Below, in pieces: positions 1,607 to 33,722 of a DNA stretch of 33,722 nucleotides. Origin of the DNA: a virus. The stretch's first letter is position 1; every line of letters begins with the position of its first letter. The stretch lies in IMG/VR virus record IMGVR_UViG_3300001596_000069, positions 1 to 33,722 of that record; one strand, written 5' to 3'. Both the position numbers and the translations under genes were made by a program. The notes under the pieces were generated by a model, which was not told where the DNA came from, searched no databases, and was given only the letters and a program-made list of their open reading frames with translations.

Positions 1607-1756
1607 CTAGTTGCCGTCTCTCAGCTGCTTATAGTCCATGCGGGCCACCTTCCGCGCAAGGGCGCGCGCCAGAGCCTTGGCAGCTTCGATTTCTTCCGGC
1701 CGGCGCGGACGCGGGAGTGATGGAGGGGGCTGTATGGTCGGTTTTCCTGCCATCAT
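1607..1756 (-). CDS. 49-residue basic protein overlapping the primase-helicase stop
   Basis: The short frame starts MMAGKPTIQ and ends at a TAG. Its ATG overlaps the stop codon of the primase-helicase gene in an ATGA junction, and it ends 13 bp before the recombinase start. The protein has a proline-rich N-terminus (PPPSLPRPRRP) and then a predicted helix rich in Ala, Lys and Arg. I do not recognise the family. Translational coupling to the upstream gene and the good fit between neighbours make it a believable gene. A small basic protein next to a serine integrase could be a recombination directionality factor or another DNA-binding accessory, but that is inference from position only. Confidence 0.6.
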   Translation of the reverse strand: MMAGKPTIQPPPSLPRPRRPEEIEAAKALARALARKVARMDYKQLRDGN

Positions 1757-4422
1757 TCCCCCGCAAAACACCAGCATTTGCAGGTCCAGCCCTCGCCCTT
1801 GTCGAGAAGGTCAGAGAGTTGCGAGCGGACAGTCTTGATGCCTTGGAACTTCCGACTACGGGAAGCCTTCAAGTGCCGCTTCAGATCCGTGATAGGCGGG
1901 ATCTGTTGTTTGCGGTTGTTGGCAACCTGGACGAAGTGATTGAGGTTCACGGCGACCACACCGGGTGTTCCGCTGTGGTTCAACATCGGCCTGCCGTCCG
2001 GCCCCTCGTTCAGGAACTCGAAGGTTTCCCAGAACTCGCGGACAACTGGGTGGTCAGCGGATATGGCGGCTTGGCGCTGAACGGCTAGTTCGCACACTTG
2101 GCTGAAGATGGCGGCATGTTGGTCATCTGTAAGATTGACCAATGGGGCCAAGGCATCTACTGCCGCCATGATCACCGCATGGTTCTTTGCCAGCCGCACG
2201 CTGCTTAGGCCGTCCAGTCCTGCAAACTCTGACTGGTAGTGTTTCGACCGCTCAAGGATCGTCGCCACGGCTTCTTTCTCGCCGGCGCATGCTCGCCGCA
2301 GAAAGGCGCTCACCGCGCTTGTAGGCATCGCCTCTAGGGCTTCCGCCGCGATCTTCGATTGCGGCGTATGACCGGACGTATCAAAGGACAGGTGCACGAT
2401 GCGCTGAAGCATGGCTTCACTGGCATCCACGTCCGCGTTCTGACTTATGACCAGGGATCCGCGAAACGGTGGTTCGCGCGTGTCGTTACCATTGTTCTTG
2501 ACGCCGGTGGCCCGGCTGGCCCGTCCGTTGTAAGCCGTCTTCAGTTCATCCCAATCGAACTTCTTGCTGTGTGCTGTGTCCTCATCCCGGTCACCTTCAA
2601 TCATGACAACCGGGAGATTCGCCACTTGCGACATGATGCGGGCGCGCGCGGCTGGCGTGGACTTTGACGGATCAAAGCCTTCGTAGTCAGATCGTCCTAC
2701 AAGCCGCCAAAGGAATTCAATGAGGGTGGACTTGCCCGCCCCAGGTGCACCCACGATCTCTAGAAACGGAAAGCTCTTCTGCGTGGCACGGATCTGTTCA
2801 GCGAACAGGCTCGCGTACCAGAAGGCGACCGCGACAATTCCCTTCTCGCCAAAGCACTCCCAGATGTAGCCAGGCCATTTGTCCTGATACTCCCGCTCGT
2901 CTCCGATATGCAGGTGTACGGACTGGTTCAGGCTCTTGATTGATAGCCGGTCCAATTCAAAGAAGTCTTCGTCGTTCAGCTCTATAGCTGCCCCATTTCT
3001 GATGGCCAGGTCGTTGAAAACGTAAGTCTGATGGTCGGCGCTGTAGCCAATAAAATCGACTGTCTCAACGGTCTTGATGCCATGCAGCTTGTCCTTAAGA
3101 AACTGGTCGAGCTGCGTTTTGGAACCGGTGAAGATGGAACCGGCTGCAATGCCTAGCAGGCGTTTCTTGAACTCTGTTGGAGCGGACAGTTGTGCGCCGG
3201 TGAAAGTGTTCTTGACAGGCCTTGCGCCATGCGGGAACCGGATCCGTGTGTAGTACCAGCTTTCGTCCGTGAGCTTGTTGACCTGGAAATACAGGAACTC
3301 TGGATAGCAGTTTGCAATCTCACTCAACATTCCCGCCTGCTTGGCGGCTTCGTCCACCAGCTCCTTTTCATCCATGCTGGCGGCGTGTTCGGAATCCTTC
3401 AACGCTTGGTGCGCGGCGTTGTAGGCAGCAAGGTCCAGGCCGAAATGGTACAGCCGGTCCTTGAACTCAAAGTTGAACCATGACTGTCCGGTGTGACGGT
3501 AACGGATCAGGGCCTTCTCTAAGGGCGTCTTCGCCAAGTGCAGCTCGCCGCGATACAGGTAGTGCTTGAGATTTTCCGGCTCTAGCTCGCCGTCTTTGAA
3601 GGCGTCGTTAAAGTCGCGCTTCTGACCGTTCTTGCCAGGGACAAAGGCCGCTACCACCTGGTCAAATCCTGCATCCTGCATGCGCTTCACATGCTTGGTG
3701 GCGGCGCGGCGTCCGGCCCGATCGTCGTCTAGCGCCCACACCCATTTCACGGATTTGTCGGCATGGTCCGCAAGCCGGATCTCGGGATAGTTGCCTGCCG
3801 AGAGAGTGGCGACGGCTTTCACGCCAGCGCAATGCAGGCTGGCCGCATCTATGCAGGCCTCAACCAACCAGACGGTATCGCCGTCTTCGATCTCTAGTCC
3901 TGGTGGTTGCCACCAAAGTCCCTTGTGCTTGCCGCCGAAGTGCTGCTTGCGGATTGTCCGCCTGCCGTCATCCTCAACCGTGATGGGCTCAACAAAGCGC
4001 TCCATATAGATTTCGTTGGCGCGGTCGATATCGAAGCGGACGGTCGCGGTTCCGGTGCGGCCAATTGCGGAGGGATTGTAGTAGGCCTCCTGACGGTAAG
4101 CACCGCGTAGCTTCTCAACAGGCAGGCCGCGCGCGTATGTCATGTAAGCGTCTGCGGTCGCGTTGGGGTCTTCCTGCGATTTCGGGAAGCGCTTGTTGAA
4201 GCCCTCAAACAGATCCTTGTAGAGATCCTTCACGGAGAATTCGGCGCCGCACCTGTTCAGCCGCCCACACCGCGCGGTCCAGGGCTTCTCCTTGGATACG
4301 TACAGCTCGCGATGACCGCATGCAGGGCACGTGCCTTGGCGCAGATAGTCACCTGCATCCTTCATGCGGTAGTCGGATTTCAGCCGCTTCAGGATCTCGT
4401 TTTGTAGTTCTTGGTTGCGCAC
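1753..4422 (-). CDS. Toprim primase / superfamily helicase, phage replication protein
   Basis: This 889-residue protein probably makes primers and unwinds DNA for phage replication. The N-terminus has a CHC2-like zinc finger (Cys32, Cys35, Cys52, Cys58). A Toprim domain follows at about 183-265, with the conserved acid in LVEACIDAASL (Glu188) and the DDD triad at 232-234. The C-terminal half is a P-loop ATPase with Walker A GAPGAGKST at 558-566 and an acidic VVMIEGD strand downstream as candidate Walker B. It takes the place of the P2 gene A initiator, of which there is no sign. The start used is a GTG with a weak ribosome site, 12 bp after the stop of the ASCH gene. An in-frame ATG at codon 20 is an alternative and would still keep the zinc finger. 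Family is certain; exact replication mode is not known. Confidence 0.92.
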   Translation of the reverse strand: MRNQELQNEILKRLKSDYRMKDAGDYLRQGTCPACGHRELYVSKEKPWTARCGRLNRCGAEFSVKDLYKDLFEGFNKRFPKSQEDPNATADAYMTYARGLPVEKLRGAYRQEAYYNPSAIGRTGTATVRFDIDRANEIYMERFVEPITVEDDGRRTIRKQHFGGKHKGLWWQPPGLEIEDGDTVWLVEACIDAASLHCAGVKAVATLSAGNYPEIRLADHADKSVKWVWALDDDRAGRRAATKHVKRMQDAGFDQVVAAFVPGKNGQKRDFNDAFKDGELEPENLKHYLYRGELHLAKTPLEKALIRYRHTGQSWFNFEFKDRLYHFGLDLAAYNAAHQALKDSEHAASMDEKELVDEAAKQAGMLSEIANCYPEFLYFQVNKLTDESWYYTRIRFPHGARPVKNTFTGAQLSAPTEFKKRLLGIAAGSIFTGSKTQLDQFLKDKLHGIKTVETVDFIGYSADHQTYVFNDLAIRNGAAIELNDEDFFELDRLSIKSLNQSVHLHIGDEREYQDKWPGYIWECFGEKGIVAVAFWYASLFAEQIRATQKSFPFLEIVGAPGAGKSTLIEFLWRLVGRSDYEGFDPSKSTPAARARIMSQVANLPVVMIEGDRDEDTAHSKKFDWDELKTAYNGRASRATGVKNNGNDTREPPFRGSLVISQNADVDASEAMLQRIVHLSFDTSGHTPQSKIAAEALEAMPTSAVSAFLRRACAGEKEAVATILERSKHYQSEFAGLDGLSSVRLAKNHAVIMAAVDALAPLVNLTDDQHAAIFSQVCELAVQRQAAISADHPVVREFWETFEFLNEGPDGRPMLNHSGTPGVVAVNLNHFVQVANNRKQQIPPITDLKRHLKASRSRKFQGIKTVRSQLSDLLDKGEGWTCKCWCFAGE

Positions 4423-4434
4423 GGCTTTTCCGGT

Positions 4435-4824
4435 CTAGGTGTCAGTGTCGGCTTGCCGGATAACGTCTTCCGGATCCCAATGGACAAGGACGCCTTCGGC
4501 AGGGAAGCCGTGGGTTGCCTTCACCCAGGCAAAGAAGTCTGCGGGTGTGTCAAAGCCATCGGCCTGGGTGAGTTTCTTTAGGCGGATGTGACCAAGGATC
4601 TGACCGTTCAGCATGATGTAATCATCACCCACGGTCATGCGGTCCACGTGTGTGCAAGTCGTCTCCGCGATGCGCCGGCAAGCCTTGGTGCGCATTCCGG
4701 TGTAGAGCTGCACCAGCCGACCAGGGCGCACATGGCGACGCTTTCCATAGACGCGGAAAGTGTGCGACTTCCGGCCTGTCTTGATCGCAGGGACGAACTT
4801 GGCCAAGAAGTTGTACGCGACCAT
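4435..4824 (-). CDS. ASCH/PUA-like domain protein
   Basis: The protein has about 129 residues and the look of an ASCH (PUA-fold, RNA- or nucleotide-binding) domain. It starts with a hydrophobic strand and a GRKSHTFR segment, then RHVRPGRLVQLYTGMRTKAC, matching the family pattern of a conserved Lys/Thr/Arg patch followed by a basic Pro-Gly turn and a YTGMRT strand. The start overlaps the methylase stop (TGATG); a GTG one codon earlier (4827) is equally possible. It sits between the C5 methylase and the primase-helicase in the early operon. ASCH proteins are common in phage early regions and some act on modified nucleosides, but nothing here fixes the substrate. Confidence 0.75.
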   Translation of the reverse strand: MVAYNFLAKFVPAIKTGRKSHTFRVYGKRRHVRPGRLVQLYTGMRTKACRRIAETTCTHVDRMTVGDDYIMLNGQILGHIRLKKLTQADGFDTPADFFAWVKATHGFPAEGVLVHWDPEDVIRQADTDT

Positions 4825-6449
4825 CACGCCACCCCTAGTTCAAGCTGATCCGGTGACTGGTGCGCCACGGCACCGCGCTTGCGCGGTCGGTTTGCCGCCG
4901 CCACAGCGCTTGCCAGGTCGGGGCAGACAGAGTTGCCACACATGCGACGTTGAGCGGTGAGGGACAGGGGCGAACCGTCCGGGCCATGATCAATGATGTA
5001 GGAGTCGCGGAAGCCTTGGGCGCGGAACAGCTCGCGTGTGGTGAGCATCCGCATGCCAATGTCTGCAAGGATCCATTGTTCGCCGGCGATCGAGACAGTC
5101 ACCAGTCCGAAGCGGTCGCGCGTTGTGACAGTGGCTGCCGGATCTGTGATCGAGCCACGCTGATCCGTTCCATAGTATTTGACCAGGAATGCAGCTACTG
5201 CGGCGGCGTGCCCACCCCCAGCGCAGATCGTCGGTGCCGGGGCATCAACGGGTTGCATGCGCCTGTCGCTGCCCTTCAGGCTCACAAGGTGTGGTGCAAC
5301 CACTGCCTGCGTGGTGGCGCGCTGGACGATGGTGCTGACCGGCGTGCGGGCGTCGTGGCCCACAACACCCGTGTTGTGTTGCGCCAGGAACGGAGCAATG
5401 AGCGATGCACCGTTCGCGGTCGGAACGATCACAGGGAGCGGGTCTGTGACTTTGCGCGTGCGCGGTTCCTGACCGTCACGCTCTCCATATCGCGGAACGA
5501 AGTAGGGCATCACCAAGCCATGCGCGTCGCGATTGGCAGTGATGGTAGCCATGGGCGCGCCAAAGTCTTGCCCACGGAAGCTATCGCCACTGTGATTGCA
5601 GACCACAAGAAAGGGGTCTGGATCTTCCAGAACGTAGCGGACCACTCCTTGAGCTATCCGGCGCATTGTGTTTTCAGCAAGGGGGCGCTTTATCTGGATG
5701 CCATGTGACTGGCGCAGCTCGCGTGCGTCGTCGCTTGTCAGGAAGATTGACGGGCAGGGGATCGACCAATCTATGATCTCCGCCGCCGTGCGGTGGGGCT
5801 GTAAATCGCCAGCGATAACGCGCGGATCGTCGGGCCGGCCATGTGTCGGCTCAGGCTTTGTGATAGGGCCACCATCGCACCGCGCCACCAGTACCAGGCG
5901 CTTCCGTATCGTCGGTGCGCCATAGTCACATGCACGCAGTTCCCACCAATCGACCTCGTACCCAATCCGGCGCAAGGCCTCTACCCAATGCCGGAATGTC
6001 TGACCCTTTCGGCGCGGGCACGGCTTCTTGTCTGTGCCAAGCGGCCCCCAATCGCGGAACTCTTCCACGTTCTCAAGTGCGATCACCGCAGGGCGTACTA
6101 ACCGCGCCCACTTGATCACAACCCAGGCCAGGTCACGGATGTGGCGCTTCACTGGCTTGCTACCCTTGGCCTTGGAGAAGTGCTTGCAGTCCGGTGAGAA
6201 CCACGCGAATGCAACGGGTTGACCGCGCGTAGCCTCAATCGGGTTGACCGCCCAGATGTCACTTACAAAGTGCTCGGTATCCGGATGATTTGCCTCATGC
6301 ATGGCGAGTGCCTGAGCATCGTGATTGATCGCGATATCCGGCGAGCGACCAAAGGCCATTTCAATGCCGGTGGAAGCACCGCCGCCGCCGGCAAAGCTGT
6401 CTATGATCAGCCCATGTAGATCCGTGGTGGCTGTATTTGCGGCGCTCAT
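4824..6449 (-). CDS. DNA (cytosine-5) methyltransferase, orphan
   Basis: This 541-residue C5-cytosine methyltransferase transfers a methyl group from S-adenosylmethionine to cytosine in DNA. Motif I (FAGGGGAS, residues 19-26) binds SAM. Motif IV is PDC with catalytic Cys88. ENVEE at 126-130 is motif VI, GAPTIRKRLVLVAR at 177-190 is motif VIII, and CGNSV near the C-terminus is motif X. Between motifs VIII and X is an unusually long target-recognition region built of several diverged repeats of the form TP..TI.A....GLV..YLV. No restriction nuclease is next to it, so it is an orphan, probably protecting phage DNA from host restriction or modifying regulation. It overlaps the J-domain gene upstream (ATGA). 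Catalytic assignment is very secure; target sequence is not predictable. Confidence 0.95.
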   Translation of the reverse strand: MSAANTATTDLHGLIIDSFAGGGGASTGIEMAFGRSPDIAINHDAQALAMHEANHPDTEHFVSDIWAVNPIEATRGQPVAFAWFSPDCKHFSKAKGSKPVKRHIRDLAWVVIKWARLVRPAVIALENVEEFRDWGPLGTDKKPCPRRKGQTFRHWVEALRRIGYEVDWWELRACDYGAPTIRKRLVLVARCDGGPITKPEPTHGRPDDPRVIAGDLQPHRTAAEIIDWSIPCPSIFLTSDDARELRQSHGIQIKRPLAENTMRRIAQGVVRYVLEDPDPFLVVCNHSGDSFRGQDFGAPMATITANRDAHGLVMPYFVPRYGERDGQEPRTRKVTDPLPVIVPTANGASLIAPFLAQHNTGVVGHDARTPVSTIVQRATTQAVVAPHLVSLKGSDRRMQPVDAPAPTICAGGGHAAAVAAFLVKYYGTDQRGSITDPAATVTTRDRFGLVTVSIAGEQWILADIGMRMLTTRELFRAQGFRDSYIIDHGPDGSPLSLTAQRRMCGNSVCPDLASAVAAANRPRKRGAVAHQSPDQLELGVA

Positions 6450-7108: not shown

Positions 7109-7423
7109 TTAGTCGACGTAGGGAAGGCGGGTTTCCGCCGGACGATTGGGCGCAACAGGACCGTTGCCGATGCGTCCGGCCTGGGTGATCTGTACAAAGA
7201 CGATGGCGGTGAACGGGGCCTTCGTCGCCAACCGCCGCCGTTTCTCGGCCAGGCCGTCCCTGATCAGCGCATTCATGACGCGCTCGGGAATGACGGCTTT
7301 GGCGTGCTTGCAGGTAGTGCCCTTCCAATAGGCGACGGTGTAGCCACCCACTGACTGGTCGAGGCGGGCGGTTGCCTGGTGCATCCGCAACAGTTCAAGG
7401 GCGCGCTGGCGAGAGGCGGGCAT
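7109..7423 (-). CDS. Hypothetical early protein (104 residues)
   Basis: I do not recognise this family. The protein is basic, with MPASRQRALELLRMHQ as an N-terminal helix, a central GGYTVAYWKGTTCKHAKAVIP beta segment and the segment ERVMNALIRDGLAEKRRR, which resembles part of a winged-helix or small DNA-binding fold. The start codon overlaps the stop of the MT-A70 gene (TAATG), with a GGAGG site upstream, so translation is coupled. It lies between the adenine methylase and the J-domain gene in the early operon. Confidence 0.72.
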   Translation of the reverse strand: MPASRQRALELLRMHQATARLDQSVGGYTVAYWKGTTCKHAKAVIPERVMNALIRDGLAEKRRRLATKAPFTAIVFVQITQAGRIGNGPVAPNRPAETRLPYVD

Positions 7424-8094
7424 TAGGCCGATTCCTCCGCATCAAACTTGCCGACTTCATTGCCCCAGGCGGTCCAGCCAGAGCGCGTGTTGCGGGCGAA
7501 CAATTCTATGTAGGGGCCGCTGAAAAGCGTCTCTATCCGGTCGTATTGTTCCGGTGGTTTGCGGCTGTGTTCGCGGGACGGGCTGCGCACGCAGTCGTGC
7601 GGGGACCATTGGATGAAGTCGCGGACACTGCGGACTCCATCCGGTTGGTGGCCTTCGTCCAGCAGATTGGCTTCCCATCCTTTGCGAAGCTGCGGGTTGC
7701 CGCGTGTCGCCAGCAAGCATGGTTCGAGGTTTTTCCGGGTGCCGTATCCGCCGCCGAATGCGTACTTACGTGTCTGCGGATTGTATTTGATCCACTCCCA
7801 CGCAAGTGCTGAGTACGTGAAACCCCAAGCCTTCAGCACCCGTTGCCAGACAGGCTGAAGCGGCCATGTCACCCACAAGAACAGTGCGCAATCCCGCGCT
7901 GCCAGAGTGCTGACCGGCAGGGCACAGATCTTAGCAATGTCCATGGTCGGGTAGTGCGCCGATGCGCTCTTGCCCGTGCCTTTCTCAGAACGCGTCTCAA
8001 AGGGCCAAGGCGGGTCCGCCAGAACGACTGAGAAGCCACCGGCGGGCCGCAGGGCGGCGAAGTCGCGCACATGTTGAGGGTTGGGCGTTGCCAT
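7423..8094 (-). CDS. MT-A70 family N6-adenine DNA methyltransferase
   Basis: The 223-residue protein carries the DPPW catalytic motif at residues 27-30 (VVLADPPWPFE) and the MT-A70 pattern further on: LFLWVTWPL, then WIKYN and FGGGYGTRKNLEPCLLATRG. It should methylate adenine N6 in DNA using SAM. Many MT-A70 proteins in phages and plasmids are orphan DNA modifiers, and this one has no restriction partner. Together with the C5 methylase it suggests the phage marks its DNA at two bases, probably against host restriction. It is coupled by overlap to the downstream hypothetical gene. Confidence 0.93.
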   Translation of the reverse strand: MATPNPQHVRDFAALRPAGGFSVVLADPPWPFETRSEKGTGKSASAHYPTMDIAKICALPVSTLAARDCALFLWVTWPLQPVWQRVLKAWGFTYSALAWEWIKYNPQTRKYAFGGGYGTRKNLEPCLLATRGNPQLRKGWEANLLDEGHQPDGVRSVRDFIQWSPHDCVRSPSREHSRKPPEQYDRIETLFSGPYIELFARNTRSGWTAWGNEVGKFDAEESA

Positions 8095-8442: not shown

Positions 8443-8727
8443 CTAGGCGCGTTTCACGGGCTCGTTCAGGGAGAGAACGAGTTGCTGGACGTTGACGTGT
8501 TCGGATAGGGGGATGTGAACGTCAGGGTTGGGCGCGGCGGACGGTGTGAGAATGCGGACGGGGGTGATCGCGCAGACGAATACGCAACCGCATTTGTCGT
8601 TGAGGCACTGGCAGGTGATTTCCCTGTAGATGGGCGTGAACTCTCGCGTCTTGCGAATGCGCGTTTTGTGCTCACAGTGCGGACATGGAATCCGCTTGAT
8701 GGTCGGCTTGTGTTCCTTCACGCGCAT
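8443..8727 (-). CDS. ogr: Ogr/Delta-like zinc-finger activator of late transcription
   Basis: The 94-residue protein has the exact cysteine spacing of the P2 Ogr / P4 Delta family: Cys15-X2-Cys18-X22-Cys41-X4-Cys46, followed by a hydrophobic CVFVCAI strand and a proline-rich tail. In P2 this zinc-binding protein contacts RNA polymerase and binds a dyad near -55 of each late promoter. The start at MRVKEHK is chosen because of the GGAG site just before it. A longer frame reading back to 8916 lacks that context and runs through the Cro-like gene. The start overlaps the Cro-like gene's end by 10 bp, so it is made from the early lytic promoter. Its likely targets are the dyads at 21024-21046 and 29871-29893. 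It is longer than P2 Ogr (72 residues). Confidence 0.9.
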   Translation of the reverse strand: MRVKEHKPTIKRIPCPHCEHKTRIRKTREFTPIYREITCQCLNDKCGCVFVCAITPVRILTPSAAPNPDVHIPLSEHVNVQQLVLSLNEPVKRA

Positions 8728-8951
8728 TGCGACGCTCCGGACACGGACGATGGGAAGGGGTGCTTGCCCTGTCTCAGGCGCTTGACTGCGGCGGCAGATT
8801 TCTTGTTGCGGATCGCCGCGCCGGTCACCTGGTCGGCGTATTTCTGAGGGAGGGTGTCGGGCAGTTGGGAGATGAAGGACTTCGAGTAACCGAGTGCCTT
8901 CGCAAGCTCCGTGCACGAACCAAACAGGGCGATGGCGTGTTCCTTAAGCAT
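8718..8951 (-). CDS. Cro-like helix-turn-helix regulator
   Basis: The protein (77 residues from MLKEHAIALFG) looks like the lambda/P22 Cro family. An initial helix ends in FGS, then comes a helix-turn-helix, TELAKALGYSKSFISQLP, and a segment LPQKYADQVTGAAI matching the Cro signature of a Pro-Glu/Gln turn followed by an alpha helix over the operator. It is the first gene of the minus-strand early operon and is divergent from the XRE repressor, with three operators between them. It should shut off repressor synthesis and moderate early transcription. An alternative ATG at 8969 lies inside the first operator. No clear ribosome site precedes either start, and the possible promoter placement would make the mRNA nearly leaderless. 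Confidence 0.85.
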   Translation of the reverse strand: MLKEHAIALFGSCTELAKALGYSKSFISQLPDTLPQKYADQVTGAAIRNKKSAAAVKRLRQGKHPFPSSVSGASQCA

Positions 8952-8958
8952 GGTTACG

Positions 8959-8987
8959 CCGTTAAGCATGCTAAACGAAAAGGTCAA
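8959..8987 (-). promoter_or_regulatory. Candidate early lytic promoter (Cro-like side)
   Basis: On the minus strand a TTGACC box (8987-8982) is followed after 17 bp by TAACGG (8964-8959), a fair -35 with a weak -10. It overlaps operators 1 and 2, so binding there would block it. Transcription would begin only a few bases before the ATG at 8951, implying a leaderless or nearly leaderless early mRNA. The call rests on match to consensus only. Confidence 0.4.
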
Positions 8988-9019
8988 GCATGCTAAACCC
9001 AAGGTTTAGTATACTTAAC
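8961..9019. promoter_or_regulatory. Three tandem repressor/Cro operators
   Basis: Three 16-bp near-palindromes share one consensus, GTTwAGyATrCTwAAC: site 1 at 8961-8976 (GTTAAGCATGCTAAAC), site 2 at 8983-8998 (GTCAAGCATGCTAAAC) and site 3 at 9004-9019 (GTTTAGTATACTTAAC). Their centres are 22 and 21 bp apart, two helical turns, so bound dimers would lie on one DNA face and could cooperate. Sites 1 and 2 cover the presumed early promoter; site 3 contains the presumed repressor -10. A weaker match is seen at 8943-8958, inside the Cro-like gene. The layout is like the lambda right operator. Confidence 0.88.
9010..9015 (+). promoter_or_regulatory. Candidate -10 box of the repressor operon
   Basis: TATACT within operator 3 fits a -10 hexamer and would place the transcription start at or next to the repressor ATG (9023), which has no ribosome site. 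A leaderless repressor mRNA, as for lambda cI from PRM, would explain both. No good -35 is present 16-18 bp upstream, so the promoter may be weak or need activation. Confidence 0.45.
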
Positions 9020-9022
9020 CGG

Positions 9023-9385
9023 ATGTTTGGTGACCGGTTGAAACTTGCGCGCGAACGCGCCGGGCTCTCGATGGCTGAATTGGCGCGGAATGCCGGGGGT
9101 ATTTCCGGGTCCGCAATAAGTCAGTTGGAGGCCGGAACGTCCAAAGGGGCGCGCCCTGAAAACCTAGCTGCGCTGGCCCGCGCCCTGGGCGTCGATATGT
9201 ATTGGTTGGCGACCGGCGAACCCAATCCTGTGCAGATTTCCGAATCAACAAGTGATTCGAAAGGCCCCTCAGCCAGTGCCAGCAGCGTCATGCTGGCGGA
9301 ATTGATCGAGCTGTTCATGTCGGTGGACGGGACAGAGAACAAGCGGCTGTTGCTGGAAGCAGCCCGCATGTTCGTGTCGCGGTAA
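9023..9385 (+). CDS. XRE-family phage repressor
   Basis: The 120-residue DNA-binding protein has an N-terminal XRE helix-turn-helix (about residues 1-60: RLKLARERAGLSMAELARN, then GSAISQLEAGTSKGARPENL and ALARALGVDMYWLATGE). A Ser/Ala-rich linker and a short helical C-terminus follow, probably for dimerisation. There is no LexA-like Ser/Lys autoprotease domain, so RecA-stimulated self-cleavage is not expected; induction must work some other way. The start at MFGDRLK is preferred over an upstream in-frame ATG at 8990, which lies inside an operator. It heads the lysogenic operon with the two membrane proteins downstream. Confidence 0.88.
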   Translation: MFGDRLKLARERAGLSMAELARNAGGISGSAISQLEAGTSKGARPENLAALARALGVDMYWLATGEPNPVQISESTSDSKGPSASASSVMLAELIELFMSVDGTENKRLLLEAARMFVSR

Positions 9386-9395
9386 GGGTGCATCC

Positions 9396-10106
9396 ATGAG
9401 TGTGATCATGTGGATTGTTGCCGGCATCATGGCCTTCTTCGCCATCGGGCAGTTCACCCTTGGCAACGTGTTGGCCGGGCTGCTTTTCGCGGTCATGGCG
9501 TTTGTGCTGTCGCCGCCGGGAACGGCGCGCGCGTTCCCCTCATACAAGGATAGCCGACGCTTTCGCGGGTGGATGGTTGTTGGTGCCGTGATCGTCTGGT
9601 TTGCGGTCGTGGTCTCTCAGATGCCGGATCCGGACGCCACACAGGACGCGACGGCGCCAGAAGATGTGATCGAGGCGGACGAAGCGGAACCGGTTGTGGT
9701 TGAGAGGGACTTGCCGCCGGACCCGGTTGTCCGCGCCGCGCCGAATGCCCCCGTCGAGACGCAGGATCCGCAACCGGCCTTTGATCCGGAGTTTCCGGCC
9801 CAGGCCCGTCAACAGGCGTCGGCGCTTTGGGCGCAGCTCAAGGGTGCGCGCTACAACAGTCAGTTCCACCAGTTCGGCTTCTCGCCCGCCGGTCCCTTCG
9901 GTGATTGGGAACGGCAACGCAAGGCACTTTATACCGAATGGTTGGACTATGCGCGCAACGGTCCCGGCGTCGCTGAAGACGTGATGCTTGGCCCGGCGAT
10001 CCACTACATGTTCACGGTCGGCATGGACTGGACGCGCACCGCCGGTCAGGGTGACGCGAATACAGCAATCATGATCCAGGACATTGAAGCGGAGCTTGGG
10101 CGGTGA
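9396..10106 (+). CDS. Membrane-anchored protein A of a paralogous pair in the repressor operon
   Basis: The 236-residue protein has three hydrophobic segments (about 3-20, 24-39 and 58-75), then a Pro/Asp/Glu-rich linker (about 76-130), then a soluble domain (about 131-236). That last domain is homologous to the soluble domain of the next gene: both show W..L...RY...FH..G....GP..DW and, near the end, an Ala-Ile...DW. motif. No known family is recognised. It starts 10 bp after the repressor stop and overlaps the next gene by four bases (GTGA), so all three should be made in the lysogen. Expression from the prophage plus membrane anchoring suggests lysogenic conversion, perhaps superinfection exclusion or phage defence; that is inference. 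Confidence 0.78.
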   Translation: MSVIMWIVAGIMAFFAIGQFTLGNVLAGLLFAVMAFVLSPPGTARAFPSYKDSRRFRGWMVVGAVIVWFAVVVSQMPDPDATQDATAPEDVIEADEAEPVVVERDLPPDPVVRAAPNAPVETQDPQPAFDPEFPAQARQQASALWAQLKGARYNSQFHQFGFSPAGPFGDWERQRKALYTEWLDYARNGPGVAEDVMLGPAIHYMFTVGMDWTRTAGQGDANTAIMIQDIEAELGR

Positions 10107-10558
10107 CCAGGATTGTTTTTTTCATCGCGGTGCTGCTCGTGGGCCTTGCAGTGTTTACAGCGCTTGGGGTGTTCTCGGGATCAACTGAACTGCCGTCGAC
10201 ACATCAGACGGTCGATATGACTACGGATACGTATCAGGAGAGAGTCCGCTCCGAACTGCGACTGCGTTGGCGGGAGTTAAACGCTGTCCGATACGATCCC
10301 GAATTTCACCGATACGGTATCCACTCCGATGGACCCATGGCCGATTGGGCTGCCGGAATGCGGGCGCTGCGGGAAGAGTTGGAAAAGCATGAACGCAAAA
10401 ACCCTGAGGCGCGGTTAGAACACCTGGATTTGAAGAACGCGATCAACGTTGTTCTGTATACGGCTACCGACTGGGCGACTACAGATGGAGGCGGCACAGA
10501 CCAGATGCGGGAATACCTCCCGCTGATTCAAGCGGAGCTTTACCGCGAGTCGTCGTAA
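10103..10558 (+). CDS. Membrane-anchored protein B of the paralogous pair
   Basis: The 151-residue protein has one N-terminal membrane helix (about residues 4-24), probably a signal anchor, followed by a soluble domain related to that of the preceding protein. Matching elements are LRWRELNAVRYDPEFHRYG, GPMADWAAGMRAL and ATDWATTDGGG. The start is a GTG overlapping the previous stop (GTGA), giving translational coupling. It ends only 9 bp before the oppositely oriented tail gene D, leaving no room for a separate terminator. Family unknown. The two proteins may form a complex at the inner membrane, with the shared domain in the same compartment or facing each other. Confidence 0.75.
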   Translation: MTRIVFFIAVLLVGLAVFTALGVFSGSTELPSTHQTVDMTTDTYQERVRSELRLRWRELNAVRYDPEFHRYGIHSDGPMADWAAGMRALREELEKHERKNPEARLEHLDLKNAINVVLYTATDWATTDGGGTDQMREYLPLIQAELYRESS

Positions 10559-10567
10559 GGGTGTGAC

Positions 10568-11554
10568 TCACGCCTTCCTCTCAAGCTGCGCTGCGGTCAT
10601 GAAGCCGCTGCCGTTCAGCGTGTGCGTCACCCGTCCGCAGATCCAGGCGATCGCATCAATTTCCGGCCGCCATCCTGTGAGGGTCACCGGCGTTTCCGCC
10701 ATCAGGTCTGCCCGCCCGATCGCCAAGGTCACAGACATGGTGTCGCGTGCCCGTTGAATGCGCGCCCATTCGCTGTCCGCTTCCGCCTGGGCTGTTGCTG
10801 CGTCCTTGAAGGTCGTGGCGAGCGTCTTCAACTTCTCCGGCGTGGATCCGCCGCCGGCGGTCACCATCTTGCGGACGCCATTGGCCACGTCATGCCATTG
10901 CGCCTTGACGCCTGAATAGTCGGTGGATCCCTGCTTGCGGCTGAAGGTGTGCCGGTCGCCGTCGCCACGGGTAAGGGTCACAGGATCCAGCGGCGTGCCG
11001 CCGGCGCTTTGTCCGGATCCGGCCTTGGCGAACAGCAGCCGTCCGGCCTTGATGGTGGCAATCGCGTCAAACTGCCGTCCAAGCCGGGTGAGAAGATGCC
11101 CGTCGCTTTCGCTCGCCTGGTCGATATGGCCGGGGTTCTGCCAGGCCAGGGCTTCCGCTACCACCAGCTCAAGGCCATGGTCCCCGGCGATGGTGCGCAG
11201 GATCTCGCCAAGTGGGATGCCGTCAAAGCTGCGGCGTTTGTGTTCGTTCAGCGACGCATGAAAGTCCGCGCTTCGCGCGTGGATCCTCAATTGATCCGGC
11301 GGGCCGGTGTCCGTCATTTCGTCGACAACGAAGCTGCCCTTGTTGATCAGGCCGGTTTCCTGGAAGCCCAGATGCACCGTCACCGATGCGCCCATGCCGG
11401 GCAGGGCAAGCAGGCCATCGGTGTTGCTCAACACAAGAACCAGCTCATCCGCTGCAAAGGCGCGCTTGTCGGTCAGGGTGAGGGTCACAAGGCGCGAGTT
11501 GATCTGCGGCGTAATGTCGGTGCCCGCGACTGTGATGAGAAAATCAGGAGTCAT
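10568..11554 (-). CDS. D: Baseplate hub / late control protein D
   Basis: The 328-residue protein matches P2 gpD, the hub between tail tube and spike. It begins with a beta-strand domain (FLITVAGTDITPQINSRL), then VSIHLGF-like and FVVDEMTDTGPPDQLRIHARSADF segments. It has the GPD hallmark region (GIPLGEILRTIAGDHGL, then QASESDGHLLTRLGRQFDA) and ends in a WICGRVTHTLNGSGFMT strand. It is the last gene of the late tail operon. The start overlaps the U stop (ATGA). Confidence 0.93.
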   Translation of the reverse strand: MTPDFLITVAGTDITPQINSRLVTLTLTDKRAFAADELVLVLSNTDGLLALPGMGASVTVHLGFQETGLINKGSFVVDEMTDTGPPDQLRIHARSADFHASLNEHKRRSFDGIPLGEILRTIAGDHGLELVVAEALAWQNPGHIDQASESDGHLLTRLGRQFDAIATIKAGRLLFAKAGSGQSAGGTPLDPVTLTRGDGDRHTFSRKQGSTDYSGVKAQWHDVANGVRKMVTAGGGSTPEKLKTLATTFKDAATAQAEADSEWARIQRARDTMSVTLAIGRADLMAETPVTLTGWRPEIDAIAWICGRVTHTLNGSGFMTAAQLERKA

Positions 11555-24096: not shown

Positions 24097-24633
24097 CTAG
24101 CTATAGGTCGGCAGGCCTTCCCTGGTGCCGCCCCTGCCGATGGTCAAAACCTGTTGCCGGTTGTGCGTCATGCTGAAACTCACATGCACCCATCCGGACT
24201 GCGGCTGGCCGATCGTGTGAAATTCGAGAATGAGCTGGTCAAAGGTCAGGTTGTCCCGGATCCACTCCGCCAGGACGTGATTGGGAATGCCCGGCAACTC
24301 GATATCCGCGGCTTCCCCGCGCGGGTGTGACTTCAGGTCCAGGTAGAGTTGCCAGGATGAGTCTTCATGCGGATCCAACCGGCGCTTGCTTGCCCATCGC
24401 AAGAAGCTGCGCCAGGTCAACACGCGTTCCAGCTCTGGCGAGCGATACCAGCTCGACGGGGAAAACGGGATCCGGAAATGCGCGCGCACGGGCTCAAGGA
24501 TCGTGTGCGCCAGTGCTTCAAGGCGCGGGTGCAGCTCCCTGGGCGGCGTGTTGTCGATGCCGTGGCGGGCAGCGGTTTGGCTGCGCATGGCTTCATGCAG
24601 GGTGAAGTGCGGTGAGAGGCGAGTGTGTGTCAT
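24097..24633 (-). CDS. Peptidase M15 endolysin
   Basis: The 178-residue protein is an M15-type D-Ala-D-Ala/L-Ala-D-Glu peptidase. Zinc ligands are His103 and Asp110 (SHPRGEAAD) and His150 (WVHVSF), with SWYRSPEL earlier in the fold. It should cut peptide cross-links in peptidoglycan to lyse the host. It lacks a signal sequence, so it needs the holins upstream to reach the wall. The start overlaps the S stop (ATGA). P2 uses a muramidase (K) placed elsewhere, so the lysis module differs. Confidence 0.9.
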   Translation of the reverse strand: MTHTRLSPHFTLHEAMRSQTAARHGIDNTPPRELHPRLEALAHTILEPVRAHFRIPFSPSSWYRSPELERVLTWRSFLRWASKRRLDPHEDSSWQLYLDLKSHPRGEAADIELPGIPNHVLAEWIRDNLTFDQLILEFHTIGQPQSGWVHVSFSMTHNRQQVLTIGRGGTREGLPTYS

Positions 24634-25109
24634 GGGGCTTGGTCCGGATCTATGTGATCGAGAATCAGCGTCTGAACGGCTTCCACGTCCGCATGCGCCA
24701 GCCCAAGCAGCTTGCGTTGCGAGTAGCGCACAAGCGGCCCCGCTTCGCCGTCGCTGCCCTTCAGCCGATCGCGAAGGCCAAATTGGTGGATACGGGCAAT
24801 GCGCGCCGTGCGGCCTTCAAAGCCGACGGCAACGCCATCTGCGGATGCGTCTATCTTCATGTGCCGGGCCTTGCGCAGACCAAGCAGCATCTTGCGCCGG
24901 CGGCGCACCTGGTCGCGCCGTGGCTTGCGCGGTGCCCACCGGCGTCCGTCCGGATCCGTCTGTTGCGTGATGCGCTTGGCGTTGATGCGCCGTAGCAGCC
25001 GGCCCATGGCAGTGAACAGCTTGGCCCGCGCCTTGGGGTCCAGGCTGGCAATCACGCCCTCAACCCAATCCTGCAATCTGTCCAGGCCTTCAGCCCGCGC
25101 AAGATCCAT
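24630..25109 (-). CDS. S: Tail completion protein S (phage virion morphogenesis)
   Basis: The 159-residue basic protein has the gpS pattern: an N-terminal helix GLDRLQDWVEGVIASLDP, a central very basic segment (RRWAPRKPRRDQ), and a C-terminal strand-helix with ARIHQFGLRDRL and GPLVRYSQRKLLGL. It is needed to finish and attach tails. It lies between R and the endolysin, ending with an ATGA overlap. Confidence 0.92.
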   Translation of the reverse strand: MDLARAEGLDRLQDWVEGVIASLDPKARAKLFTAMGRLLRRINAKRITQQTDPDGRRWAPRKPRRDQVRRRRKMLLGLRKARHMKIDASADGVAVGFEGRTARIARIHQFGLRDRLKGSDGEAGPLVRYSQRKLLGLAHADVEAVQTLILDHIDPDQAP

Positions 25110-25111
25110 GA

Positions 25112-25528
25112 TCAGGTGCCCTCGCTGAAGCCGGTCAGGCTGTCCGCGTCAATGCGCGGTTCCGGCTGAAGGGTCAGGCGGTGATCCCCGTCAACGGTCT
25201 CAACGGCCCAGGTTTCCGATAGGGGCACGCTGAACGCGATATCCGCCGCGTCCGTGTTGAGAATGTCGGCATCAAAGGTGACGGCATCCGGGGCAAGGCC
25301 GGGCTGAAACTCTTCCAGCCAGTCCCAGAGGAACAAGGCCACGGTGACCGGGTTGCCGGTGAACATCTCCGCCAGCACGTCTGCCCGGTAGGTCAGGCGC
25401 AGGCTGCGGCTTTCGCCGTCCACATACCGCAGCACGGTGCCGCTATCAGCAAACGTCACCAGCGTGTCCGCCTTGAAGCCCAGGGGTGCGGCTAGCAGGT
25501 GCTCGCGAAGGTCGGCCAGGCGCTTCAT
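25112..25528 (-). CDS. R: Tail completion protein R
   Basis: The 138-residue protein starts MKRLADLREHLLAAP, the P2 gpR opening, and has LRYVDGESRSLRLTYRADV and FLWDWLEEFQPGL. The start overlaps the holin stop (ATGA); longer frames upstream run through the holin gene and are rejected. It precedes S as in P2. Confidence 0.9.
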   Translation of the reverse strand: MKRLADLREHLLAAPLGFKADTLVTFADSGTVLRYVDGESRSLRLTYRADVLAEMFTGNPVTVALFLWDWLEEFQPGLAPDAVTFDADILNTDAADIAFSVPLSETWAVETVDGDHRLTLQPEPRIDADSLTGFSEGT

Positions 25529-25959
25529 TGGGGTGTGGATCGCTGTCGGTTTTCTGCCCAAGCGCGCATCACCGATGGCACCACTTTCTCGGCACTGCGT
25601 CCAACAACATAGCCGCCAAGGCCGATCTTCATTAGTTCGTATACAGACAGAAGTTCGTCTTCGCTCATGTCGCCTGCCGTCCACCCCAACCATCGCGCCA
25701 CAATAAGCAGCAAGAAAGTGATCATGGTGAGTGGTCGCCAGTTGCGCTGAAGCCAGCTCTTGCCGTTCGCCTCTGCCTGAATGATCGCAGCCTGTGCCGT
25801 CGCAAGCTTGCCTTCGTACTCAAGCGCTGACTTCATCAAGGTTGCTTCGTGGCTGCGCAACATGTTCTCGGCTGCAAGGCGGTCTTTGTCGGTGGTGAAG
25901 AGGCTGCCAACACCTTTGATCACTTCACCAACAGAGCTACCGATTATCTCACCCAGCAT
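25525..25959 (-). CDS. Holin of the gene-transfer-agent three-helix family
   Basis: The 144-residue protein is similar to GTA_holin_3TM proteins. A long amphipathic N-terminal helix with Lys/Glu/Ala precedes the membrane helix WRPLTMITFLLLIVARWLGW (about residues 73-92), and a second hydrophobic helix (LMKIGLGGYVVGRSAEKVV) follows. It would make inner-membrane lesions to release the M15 endolysin. It overlaps the 68-residue holin gene upstream by 11 bp and gene R downstream by 4 bp. Two holin-like genes in tandem suggest a holin/antiholin pair. Confidence 0.85.
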   Translation of the reverse strand: MLGEIIGSSVGEVIKGVGSLFTTDKDRLAAENMLRSHEATLMKSALEYEGKLATAQAAIIQAEANGKSWLQRNWRPLTMITFLLLIVARWLGWTAGDMSEDELLSVYELMKIGLGGYVVGRSAEKVVPSVMRAWAENRQRSTPQ

Positions 25960-26155
25960 TGCTGTCTCCGTTTCCTTGCTCCAAGGCGCGCTCGGCCAGC
26001 TTGAAGTGTTTGCGCTTGTACCAAGCGTTGACGAGGAAGGTTGCTATCGCAGTCAGGAGGCCTGCGAGCGCAATCCATTCATTGAAGGTCAGTACACCGA
26101 TCATTGTGGCGGTGCCGCTTCCGGCGTAGCTCGTGGCTGATGGCACGTCGTTCAT
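25949..26155 (-). CDS. Small single-helix holin-like protein
   Basis: The 68-residue protein has one membrane helix (about residues 27-44), a short N-terminal part with SYAGSGTATMIG and a basic C-terminus (WYKRKHFKLAE). That is the pattern of the HP1-type class of small phage holins (the P2 Y gene holds the same place). The start is just before X and the stop overlaps the GTA-type holin. It could serve as holin, antiholin or regulator of the larger one. Confidence 0.78.
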   Translation of the reverse strand: MNDVPSATSYAGSGTATMIGVLTFNEWIALAGLLTAIATFLVNAWYKRKHFKLAERALEQGNGDSNAG

Positions 26156-26157
26156 TC

Positions 26158-26400
26158 TCAATCCCACAGCTTCACGCTGGTATCCGTGGTCAGGGTCGTG
26201 TTGGTCGGGCTCGGCAGGCGGACGGGTGTGCCTTCCGGCAGGACCGGTCCGAGATCCGCAAGCCCGTGGTTCATGTCGATCAGCTTTTCGGTGGCCCCGG
26301 ACCATTCGCCCAGATAGCGTGCACAGATGATGTCCGCCGTGTCGCCTTGCCGTGCGTAGGCAACGCCGCTGTCCGGGAATGGTTCGCGCCGGACGCCCAT
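26158..26400 (-). CDS. X: Tail protein X
   Basis: The 80-residue protein matches P2 gpX: GVAYARQGDTADIICARYLG, with the LysM-like D.(I/V)C.RY pattern, then LIDMNHGLADLGPVLPEGTPVRLP. It belongs to the baseplate/tail assembly set. The start overlaps the L stop (TGATG). Confidence 0.92.
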   Translation of the reverse strand: MGVRREPFPDSGVAYARQGDTADIICARYLGEWSGATEKLIDMNHGLADLGPVLPEGTPVRLPSPTNTTLTTDTSVKLWD

Positions 26401-32828: not shown

Positions 32829-33722
32829 CTAGTGTTGCAGGCTAACGCTGACCACCATCATCTCTTGTTTCTCTCCTAATGGCGGATATCCAGCTCCTTG
32901 TGCACCGAAACTGAGCTGTTGCTTGTGGCCGAACACATCGAGCCATATGCAGTTACACTGAATGACAACGCCGTCGACATCTTTCTCGAAGTTCATCCAC
33001 CCAGGGATCGGATGGTCAATATTGCGTTGGACACTTTCCGGTGCTCGCGCAAAAGCAGAGATCCACGCCGCCGGACCTGGTTCAACACGCAGATCTAGCG
33101 TAGTTACGCATGTGGCGCCTGCGGCTATAACCTCAGAGTCGGAGGAGGAATCAAGAAGTTTCGCCACATCGATACCACCTGGAGGCTCTGGGCTCTTGTA
33201 TACTATGGTTGTGCGAACTCCAATCCGGGCTTGGAAGGCTGGTGACTGACCGCTGTTTTTCAGTGTGACCTCAAGTCGTGTACCGACTTCCGTCCTATCA
33301 ATTTCTACCTTGATTGGTGTCAAGTATGCCCGGACTTGAGCTTTTCCAATGCGTTCAGTTTGGGATGAGGTCTCTCGCATCGCTTGGGTTCCTGCGCTGG
33401 TCGCTTCGACGGCTTTGCGTGTTTCCTCCAATGTGCGCCACACAGCAATAACACCGGCGGCAGTGATGCCCAGAGATATCATCCCGGTGAGTGCAACAAC
33501 CATGGTCCATACCGCCATAGTCTGTTGTGCAGTGAGGTCTTGAAGCTCGCGGTTAACTTGTCCGTGTTCGGAAGCAAGAGCTTCAGCGTTGCCAGAGCGC
33601 AACTCCATTTCTGTCATAGTCCGTCCGGACAAGTAGGCGGTGACAGCTATTGATGCGCCGGCGAGAATGAGTATCGCCGTGGTTGTGATTATCCGCGCGT
33701 TGGCCTTGAAGAGTTGCCGCAT
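32829..33722 (-). CDS. Membrane protein with C-terminal beta domain, possible moron
   Basis: The 297-residue protein has two membrane helices (about 11-31 and 68-92). A Ser/Thr/Glu-rich coiled-coil segment then leads to a soluble domain that starts VRAYLTPIKVEI. That domain has LKNSGQSPAFQARIGV and FGHKQQLSFG, a beta-sandwich of the RAY...NxGxSPA type found in many uncharacterised proteobacterial membrane proteins. The gene ends 86 bp from the portal stop and points the other way. It looks lower in GC than the late genes. The start coincides with the window edge, so an upstream start cannot be excluded. Position recalls P2's lysogenic conversion genes; function unknown. Confidence 0.7.
   Translation of the reverse strand: MRQLFKANARIITTTAILILAGASIAVTAYLSGRTMTEMELRSGNAEALASEHGQVNRELQDLTAQQTMAVWTMVVALTGMISLGITAAGVIAVWRTLEETRKAVEATSAGTQAMRETSSQTERIGKAQVRAYLTPIKVEIDRTEVGTRLEVTLKNSGQSPAFQARIGVRTTIVYKSPEPPGGIDVAKLLDSSSDSEVIAAGATCVTTLDLRVEPGPAAWISAFARAPESVQRNIDHPIPGWMNFEKDVDGVVIQCNCIWLDVFGHKQQLSFGAQGAGYPPLGEKQEMMVVSVSLQH

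What the first reader, a model, noticed from the sequence alone, without database searches (positions are those of the whole stretch)
9396..10558. Two paralogous membrane-anchored proteins co-expressed with the prophage repressor
Both proteins have N-terminal membrane helices and a homologous soluble domain with W..L...RY...FH..G....GP..DW and a later DW motif. They sit directly behind the repressor, with 10 bp and 4 bp junctions, so the lysogen should make them constantly. Tandem duplicates that diverged in anchor (three helices and acidic linker versus one helix) but kept one domain suggest a two-component membrane complex. I know no named family for the domain. Superinfection exclusion or anti-phage defence is the leading inference.
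Basis: partly seen in the sequence, partly recalled or inferred. Interest (0 to 1): 0.68.

Follow-up and report, generated by a model that had tools for sequence, protein, structure and literature searches.

The report
Periplasmic proteins behind a prophage repressor
A P2-like prophage carries, directly behind its repressor gene, two related inner-membrane proteins that hold a new helical domain in the periplasm; place, topology and predicted fold resemble Glo, a known protein that keeps rival phages out, although the sequences are unrelated and nothing has been tested experimentally.

Summary
Gene A (9396-10106, 3 predicted membrane helices) and gene B (10103-10558, 1 helix) share a ~105-aa domain (30% identity, E=1e-14). 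They follow a repressor whose control region has three 16-bp palindromic operators. The window is a P2-like virus record with a serine recombinase. No curated family matches the domain. Four phages or prophages carry it (window, L003, L009, L016), always on the repressor's strand just behind it; only the window has the pair. A fifth relative (L004) keeps a 48-bp scar of gene A. The domain is under strong purifying selection (dN/dS about 0.09; linker about 0.76) and is predicted to be periplasmic.

AlphaFold gives a confident helical bundle. In the viral structure library, the three most probable Foldseek matches of protein B all belong to the Glo family and lie directly behind cI in other P2-like phages. 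Glo of phage K139 is a periplasmic superinfection-exclusion protein. The E-values are not significant, profile comparison finds no sequence kinship, and Glo's two cysteines are missing. So this works like Glo but is not shown to be Glo.

Superinfection exclusion is the best reading (about 0.55). An obligate two-component complex is not supported as a general rule.

The parts
8718..8951 (-). Cro-like HTH regulator, divergent from the repressor (ATG start chosen at 8951; the ORF runs up to 9002)
   Evidence: ORF; PHROG transcriptional regulator E=1.5e-6
8961..9019 (.). three 16-bp near-palindromic operator-like sites: 8961-8976, 8983-8998, 9004-9019
9023..9385 (+). prophage repressor (HTH_3)
9396..10106 (+). 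gene A: three membrane helices, acidic linker, periplasmic helical domain
   Evidence: homologues L003, L009, L016
9780..10103 (+). soluble domain of A (residues 129-236), confident helical-bundle model
   Evidence: pLDDT 94.7; conserved columns
10103..10558 (+). gene B: one membrane helix and a paralogous periplasmic domain, start overlapping the stop of A by 4 bases
10223..10546 (+). soluble domain of B (residues 41-148)
   Evidence: same order of helices as A
10568..11554 (-). convergent neighbour: P2 gpD-like baseplate hub gene, fixed edge of the cargo slot
   Evidence: Phage_GPD; phrog_52, E=3e-120

Best explanation
A and B are lysogenic-conversion cargo made from the repressor transcript. 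Both sit in the inner membrane and hold a five-helix domain (four long helices and a short one) in the periplasm. The most likely job is superinfection exclusion: the domain meets the tail tip or tape measure of an incoming related phage, or a host inner-membrane entry factor, and stops the genome from crossing the inner membrane, much as Glo of the P2-like phage K139 and, by another fold, SieA of P22 are described to exclude phages. A seems to be the core component; B is a second copy in this phage that may widen the target range or pair with A. Shown here: gene layout, paralogy, operators, conservation of the domain, co-occurrence with repressors. Predicted: membrane topology and fold. Inferred: expression in the lysogen, exclusion, the step blocked.
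For: All four known carriers have the gene on the repressor's strand directly behind it (and the window). The window has a repressor/Cro control region with three operators, P2-like capsid, terminase, portal and tail genes and a serine recombinase. Positive charges lie in the loop before the last anchor helix and acidic residues after it, so the domain should be periplasmic. The domain evolves slowly (dN/dS 0.058/0.633 between L003 and L009) while the linker drifts (0.362/0.477). Foldseek of the B model: the three highest probabilities are A5X9F4 of phiO18P (0.98), A0A1D9C9Q8 of SMHB1 (0.80) and A0A6M3A3A6 of yong1 (0.77); the A domain finds SMHB1 (0.82, rank 3) and phiO18P (0.57, rank 5). All three genes lie directly behind cI and belong with K139 Glo by profile. 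K139 glo is annotated 'periplasmic protein; involved in phage exclusion' in a cI-orf2-glo-int lysogenic operon; PMC8537503 links SMHB1 gp4 to Glo and reports that Glo plays a role in exclusion. A separate lysis cassette exists in the window.
Against: No experiment. Foldseek E-values are 0.15-1.1, and helical bundles match by chance: the PDB list is led by a designed protein at Z 10.9 and by sensor domains at Z 8-9. HHalign of the two families gives probability 0.1%, and the A/B profile does not hit Glo. Glo's bracketing cysteines are absent from A and B. Topology rests on hydropathy and the positive-inside rule. The Glo comparison was not planned before the structure search. The A and B models share most alignment rows, so the two searches are not independent.
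Confidence: 0.55

Rival explanations
1. Other lysogenic conversion: the periplasmic domain alters the host envelope (receptor masking, stress response, surface or transport function) to the benefit of the lysogen, without stopping DNA entry.
For: Membrane anchor, periplasmic domain and lysogenic expression fit equally well; fold neighbours include sensor and ligand-binding bundles such as KinB (Z 8.8) and PcaY (Z 8.5).
Against: The best viral fold matches are proteins of the exclusion family Glo in the same gene slot. Such Z values are ordinary for helical bundles (note).
Confidence: 0.22
2. Abortive-infection device: the periplasmic domain senses phage entry and the membrane helices of A then depolarise or damage the membrane (RexB-like logic).
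For: A has three membrane helices and a sensor-like outer domain; A and B differ in anchor, which would fit an effector plus a partner.
Against: No PADLOC match. No charged or pore-like feature was noted in the helices. Three relatives lack B.
Confidence: 0.12
3. Accessory lysis or holin-control genes.
For: Small membrane proteins in a phage with predicted periplasmic domains.
Against: Endolysin and two holin-family genes lie together at 24097-26305 on the other strand; A/B lie in the repressor operon; relative L004 lives without an intact copy.
Confidence: 0.04
4. A more specific form of the main reading: the pair is an obligate two-component complex in which A and B form a hetero-oligomer needed for activity.
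For: 4-base overlap of the genes suggests coupled translation; same domain with different anchors.
Against: L003, L009 and L016 carry A alone; no evidence of co-evolution could be gathered from a single pair.
Confidence: 0.2

Closest known systems
Glo of Vibrio phage K139 and its relatives (phrog_7270, phrog_37565, phrog_21596: SMHB1 gp4, yong1, phiO18P orf3, P05B)
   Same: P2-like phages; gene on the repressor's strand in the lysogenic operon behind cI; periplasmic helical domain, in phiO18P/P05B also on several membrane helices; fold match by Foldseek
   Different: no detectable sequence kinship; no pair of cysteines; K139 Glo and SMHB1 gp4 are secreted, not membrane-anchored; the window's slot ends at gene D, not at the integrase
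SieA of Salmonella phage P22
   Same: prophage-expressed inner-membrane protein predicted to have three membrane helices; blocks DNA injection (PMC10883804)
   Different: 162-164 aa, so no room for the ~55-residue linker plus 105-aa domain of A; no PHROG/Pfam link seen; target is the ejection proteins of short-tailed phages
HK97 gp15, Ltp of TP-J34, Sie2009
   Same: prophage exclusion proteins held at the outer face of the cytoplasmic membrane by one helix or a lipid (PMC3952083)
   Different: no family link seen in the searches here; Ltp and Sie2009 are from phages of Gram-positive hosts
DUF5699 (PF18956)
   Same: weak match to membrane helices 1-2 of A, residues 3-42 (21.8 bits)
   Different: below the curated cut-off of 29 bits; says nothing on the soluble domain

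Membership tests
Glo family (K139 Glo, phrog_7270 and kin) | sequence profile match of the soluble domain | tested here: not met
   hhalign probability 0.13%, E=0.45 over 6 columns; hmmsearch of K139 Glo with the A/B profile about 0 bits; no PHROG hit
Glo family (K139 Glo, phrog_7270 and kin) | two cysteines bracketing the domain | tested here: not met
   both cysteines are invariant in the Glo alignment; the A/B domains hold no cysteine
Glo family (K139 Glo, phrog_7270 and kin) | helical-bundle fold | tested here: inconclusive
   three Glo-family structures have the highest Foldseek probabilities for B (0.98, 0.80, 0.77) but E 0.15-1.1; A domain 0.82 and 0.57
Glo family (K139 Glo, phrog_7270 and kin) | gene behind cI on the same strand in a P2-like phage | tested here: met
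   window; L003, L009, L016; K139; SMHB1; phiO18P; yong1 and P05B
Glo family (K139 Glo, phrog_7270 and kin) | periplasmic location | tested here: inconclusive
   predicted by hydropathy and charge only
Superinfection exclusion proteins in general | expression from the prophage blocks infection by related phages | not testable with these tools
   needs plating assays
P22 SieA | sequence or fold match to SieA | tested here: inconclusive
   no PHROG or Pfam hit of A or B; no direct comparison with SieA was made
Known anti-phage defence systems in PADLOC | PADLOC profile hit | tested here: not met
   no family up to E=1

The most novel reading that the evidence does not exclude
A new, sequence-unrelated class of periplasmic exclusion domain in which two anchored paralogues with different membrane stems act together at the inner membrane, so that duplication of the domain sets which phages are shut out.
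Probability: 0.2. Interest if true: 0.65.

Novelty: new variant of a known kind. Interest (0 to 1): 0.5.

Why it matters
The slot right behind the repressor of several P2-like phages repeatedly holds a protein with a helical domain facing the periplasm, in at least two sequence families: Glo-type in vibrio and aeromonas phages, and this one in a lineage whose one host-assigned member is alphaproteobacterial. If exclusion is confirmed, gene position plus topology would predict exclusion genes that sequence search misses, and the Glo-type PHROGs, all listed as 'unknown function', could be named. It also gives a small domain with a confident predicted fold for asking how a periplasmic protein stops a contractile-tailed phage from delivering its DNA.

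Tried and rejected
Sequence searches with A and B alone in phage and plasmid records and in IMG/VR found nothing; the relatives came only through an alignment or through neighbouring gene D. Profile searches of 385 alphaproteobacterial and 398 phylum-wide genomes found no carrier besides the L009 genome; the one weak hit (G511, E=0.009) lies in a porin-like ORF and was rejected as chance. PDB sequence search: nothing. PDB fold search: matches to KinB and PcaY sensor domains, YmoB and designed bundles at Z 8-11 were set aside as ordinary for helical bundles. The weak Pfam hit Anthrone_oxy of B and the XopJ and Zot-like profile hits (E 0.005-0.03) were rejected as chance on helical or linker sequence. 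A bridge between A/B and Glo was sought in 385 and 398 genomes with the Glo profile; none was found (the tool warns that an empty answer without a positive control shows little). Promoter scan of 8700-10800: no sigma-70-like site, which says little for this host.

Full report
WHAT IS THERE. The window is a 33.7-kb virus record of P2-like build: P2-family capsid, gpP-like terminase, portal, sheath, gpI and gpJ tail genes and a serine recombinase at 1-1593, gpD at 10568-11554, and an Ogr/Delta zinc finger. Between gpD and the early genes lies a control region: a divergent Cro-like gene and repressor with three 16-bp near-palindromes spaced 22 and 21 bp. Behind the repressor come gene A (10 bp later) and gene B (start overlaps the stop of A by four bases), then gpD in the opposite direction.

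PARALOGY AND TOPOLOGY. The soluble domains of A and B are 30% identical, E=1e-14. Hydropathy gives three helices in A and one in B. In A the loop before the last helix is basic (5 K/R, 1 D/E) and everything after it is acidic, so the positive-inside rule puts both domains in the periplasm. This is a prediction.

DISTRIBUTION. No Pfam, NCBIfam, PHROG or PADLOC family covers the domain. Direct searches found no relative; the neighbouring gpD gene led to closely related phages and an alignment to a prophage contig of a Candidatus Phaeomarinobacter MAG. Four carriers are known. Window: repressor-A-B-gpD. L003: repressor-A-gpD. L009: repressor-A-antisense gene-gpD. L016, with gpD 61% identical: repressor-300 bp-A-gpD. 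A fifth relative, L004, has a closely similar repressor but no intact gene: the 60 bp between its repressor and gpD hold a 48-bp ungapped match, about 71% identical, to the 3' end of the window's gene A, which none of 1000 shuffles reached. So the gene was there and was lost: it is accessory.

SELECTION. Between L003 and L009 the domain has dN 0.058 and dS 0.633, the linker dN 0.362 and dS 0.477. The periplasmic domain is what is being kept.

FOLD. AlphaFold gives the A domain pLDDT 94.7, pTM 0.88, helices 5-22, 27-32, 41-60, 70-86, 93-106. B shows the same order of helices after its membrane helix. Searches of the PDB give only matches usual for helical bundles. In the library of viral models, the B model's three highest probabilities are A5X9F4 (phiO18P), A0A1D9C9Q8 (SMHB1) and A0A6M3A3A6 (yong1); the first two also rank 5 and 3 for the A domain. 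By organism and length (195, 150 and 295 aa) these correspond to phiO18_3, PP_00004 and the gene after CI in yong1, all directly behind cI in Peduoviridae. They are kin of Glo of phage K139: with a Glo-family alignment led by K139 Glo, tblastn gave 1e-14 to a yong1-like contig, 8e-9 to a P05B-like one and 3e-6 to an SMHB1-like one, and they share PHROGs. K139 glo lies in the operon cI-orf2-glo-int and is annotated as periplasmic and involved in exclusion. PMC8537503 reports 20% identity of SMHB1 gp4 to Glo and says that Glo was shown to play a role in exclusion. The original K139 paper (Nesper 1999) is not in the library.

LIMITS OF THE GLO LINK. Foldseek E-values are 0.15 to 1.1. HHalign finds no sequence kinship. 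Glo's cysteines are missing. The comparison was noticed after the search, and both models rest on largely the same few rows. I therefore claim likeness of place, topology and probably fold, not membership.

BASE RATE OF THE SLOT. In four other P2-like phages looked at, the genes behind the repressor are mixed: Halomonas phage 4908 has two soluble proteins and one with four membrane helices, Dobby a 116-aa protein with a signal-like N-terminus, KP12 a one-helix coiled-coil protein, and Mana nothing of this kind. Envelope proteins are common there but not the rule, so position alone is moderate evidence.

MECHANISM. Most likely (0.55): lysogen-made, inner-membrane-anchored proteins whose periplasmic domain stops genome delivery by related contractile-tailed phages. 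Rivals: other envelope conversion (0.22), abortive infection (0.12), lysis control (0.04, disfavoured by an endolysin and two holin-family genes at 24097-26305). The 'two-component complex' idea, which is a refinement of the main reading and not exclusive with it, is weakened because three of four carriers have A alone; the tree cannot tell whether B arose from the window's own A (p-AU 0.27; B has a very long branch).

Noticed in passing
L009 8420-9136 (-): A 238-aa gene with a possible coiled coil and membrane segment sits antisense between gene A and gpD, flanked by a ~65-bp second copy of the 3' end of gpD: looks like a recent cargo insertion.
   Followed up: partly
L004 7000-7059: 48-bp remnant of the 3' end of gene A between repressor and gpD: a deletion scar.
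   Followed up: yes
L094 (phiO18P) 1648-2496 (-): phiO18_3 is annotated too short: the open frame starts 9 bp behind cI and, like P05B, encodes several membrane helices before the Glo-like domain.
   Followed up: yes
phrog_7270, phrog_37565, phrog_21596: These PHROGs are listed as unknown function, but K139 Glo, a described exclusion protein, matches phrog_7270 over its full length.
   Followed up: yes
window 4824-6449 (-) and 7423-8094 (-): A C5 cytosine methyltransferase and an MT-A70-type adenine methyltransferase lie in the early region.
   Followed up: no
L108 22668-23018 (-): Phage Dobby has an unrelated 116-aa protein with a signal-like N-terminus behind its repressor, another possible envelope cargo.
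   Followed up: no
window 32829-33722 (-): 297-aa open frame at the right end without any Pfam or PHROG match.
   Followed up: no
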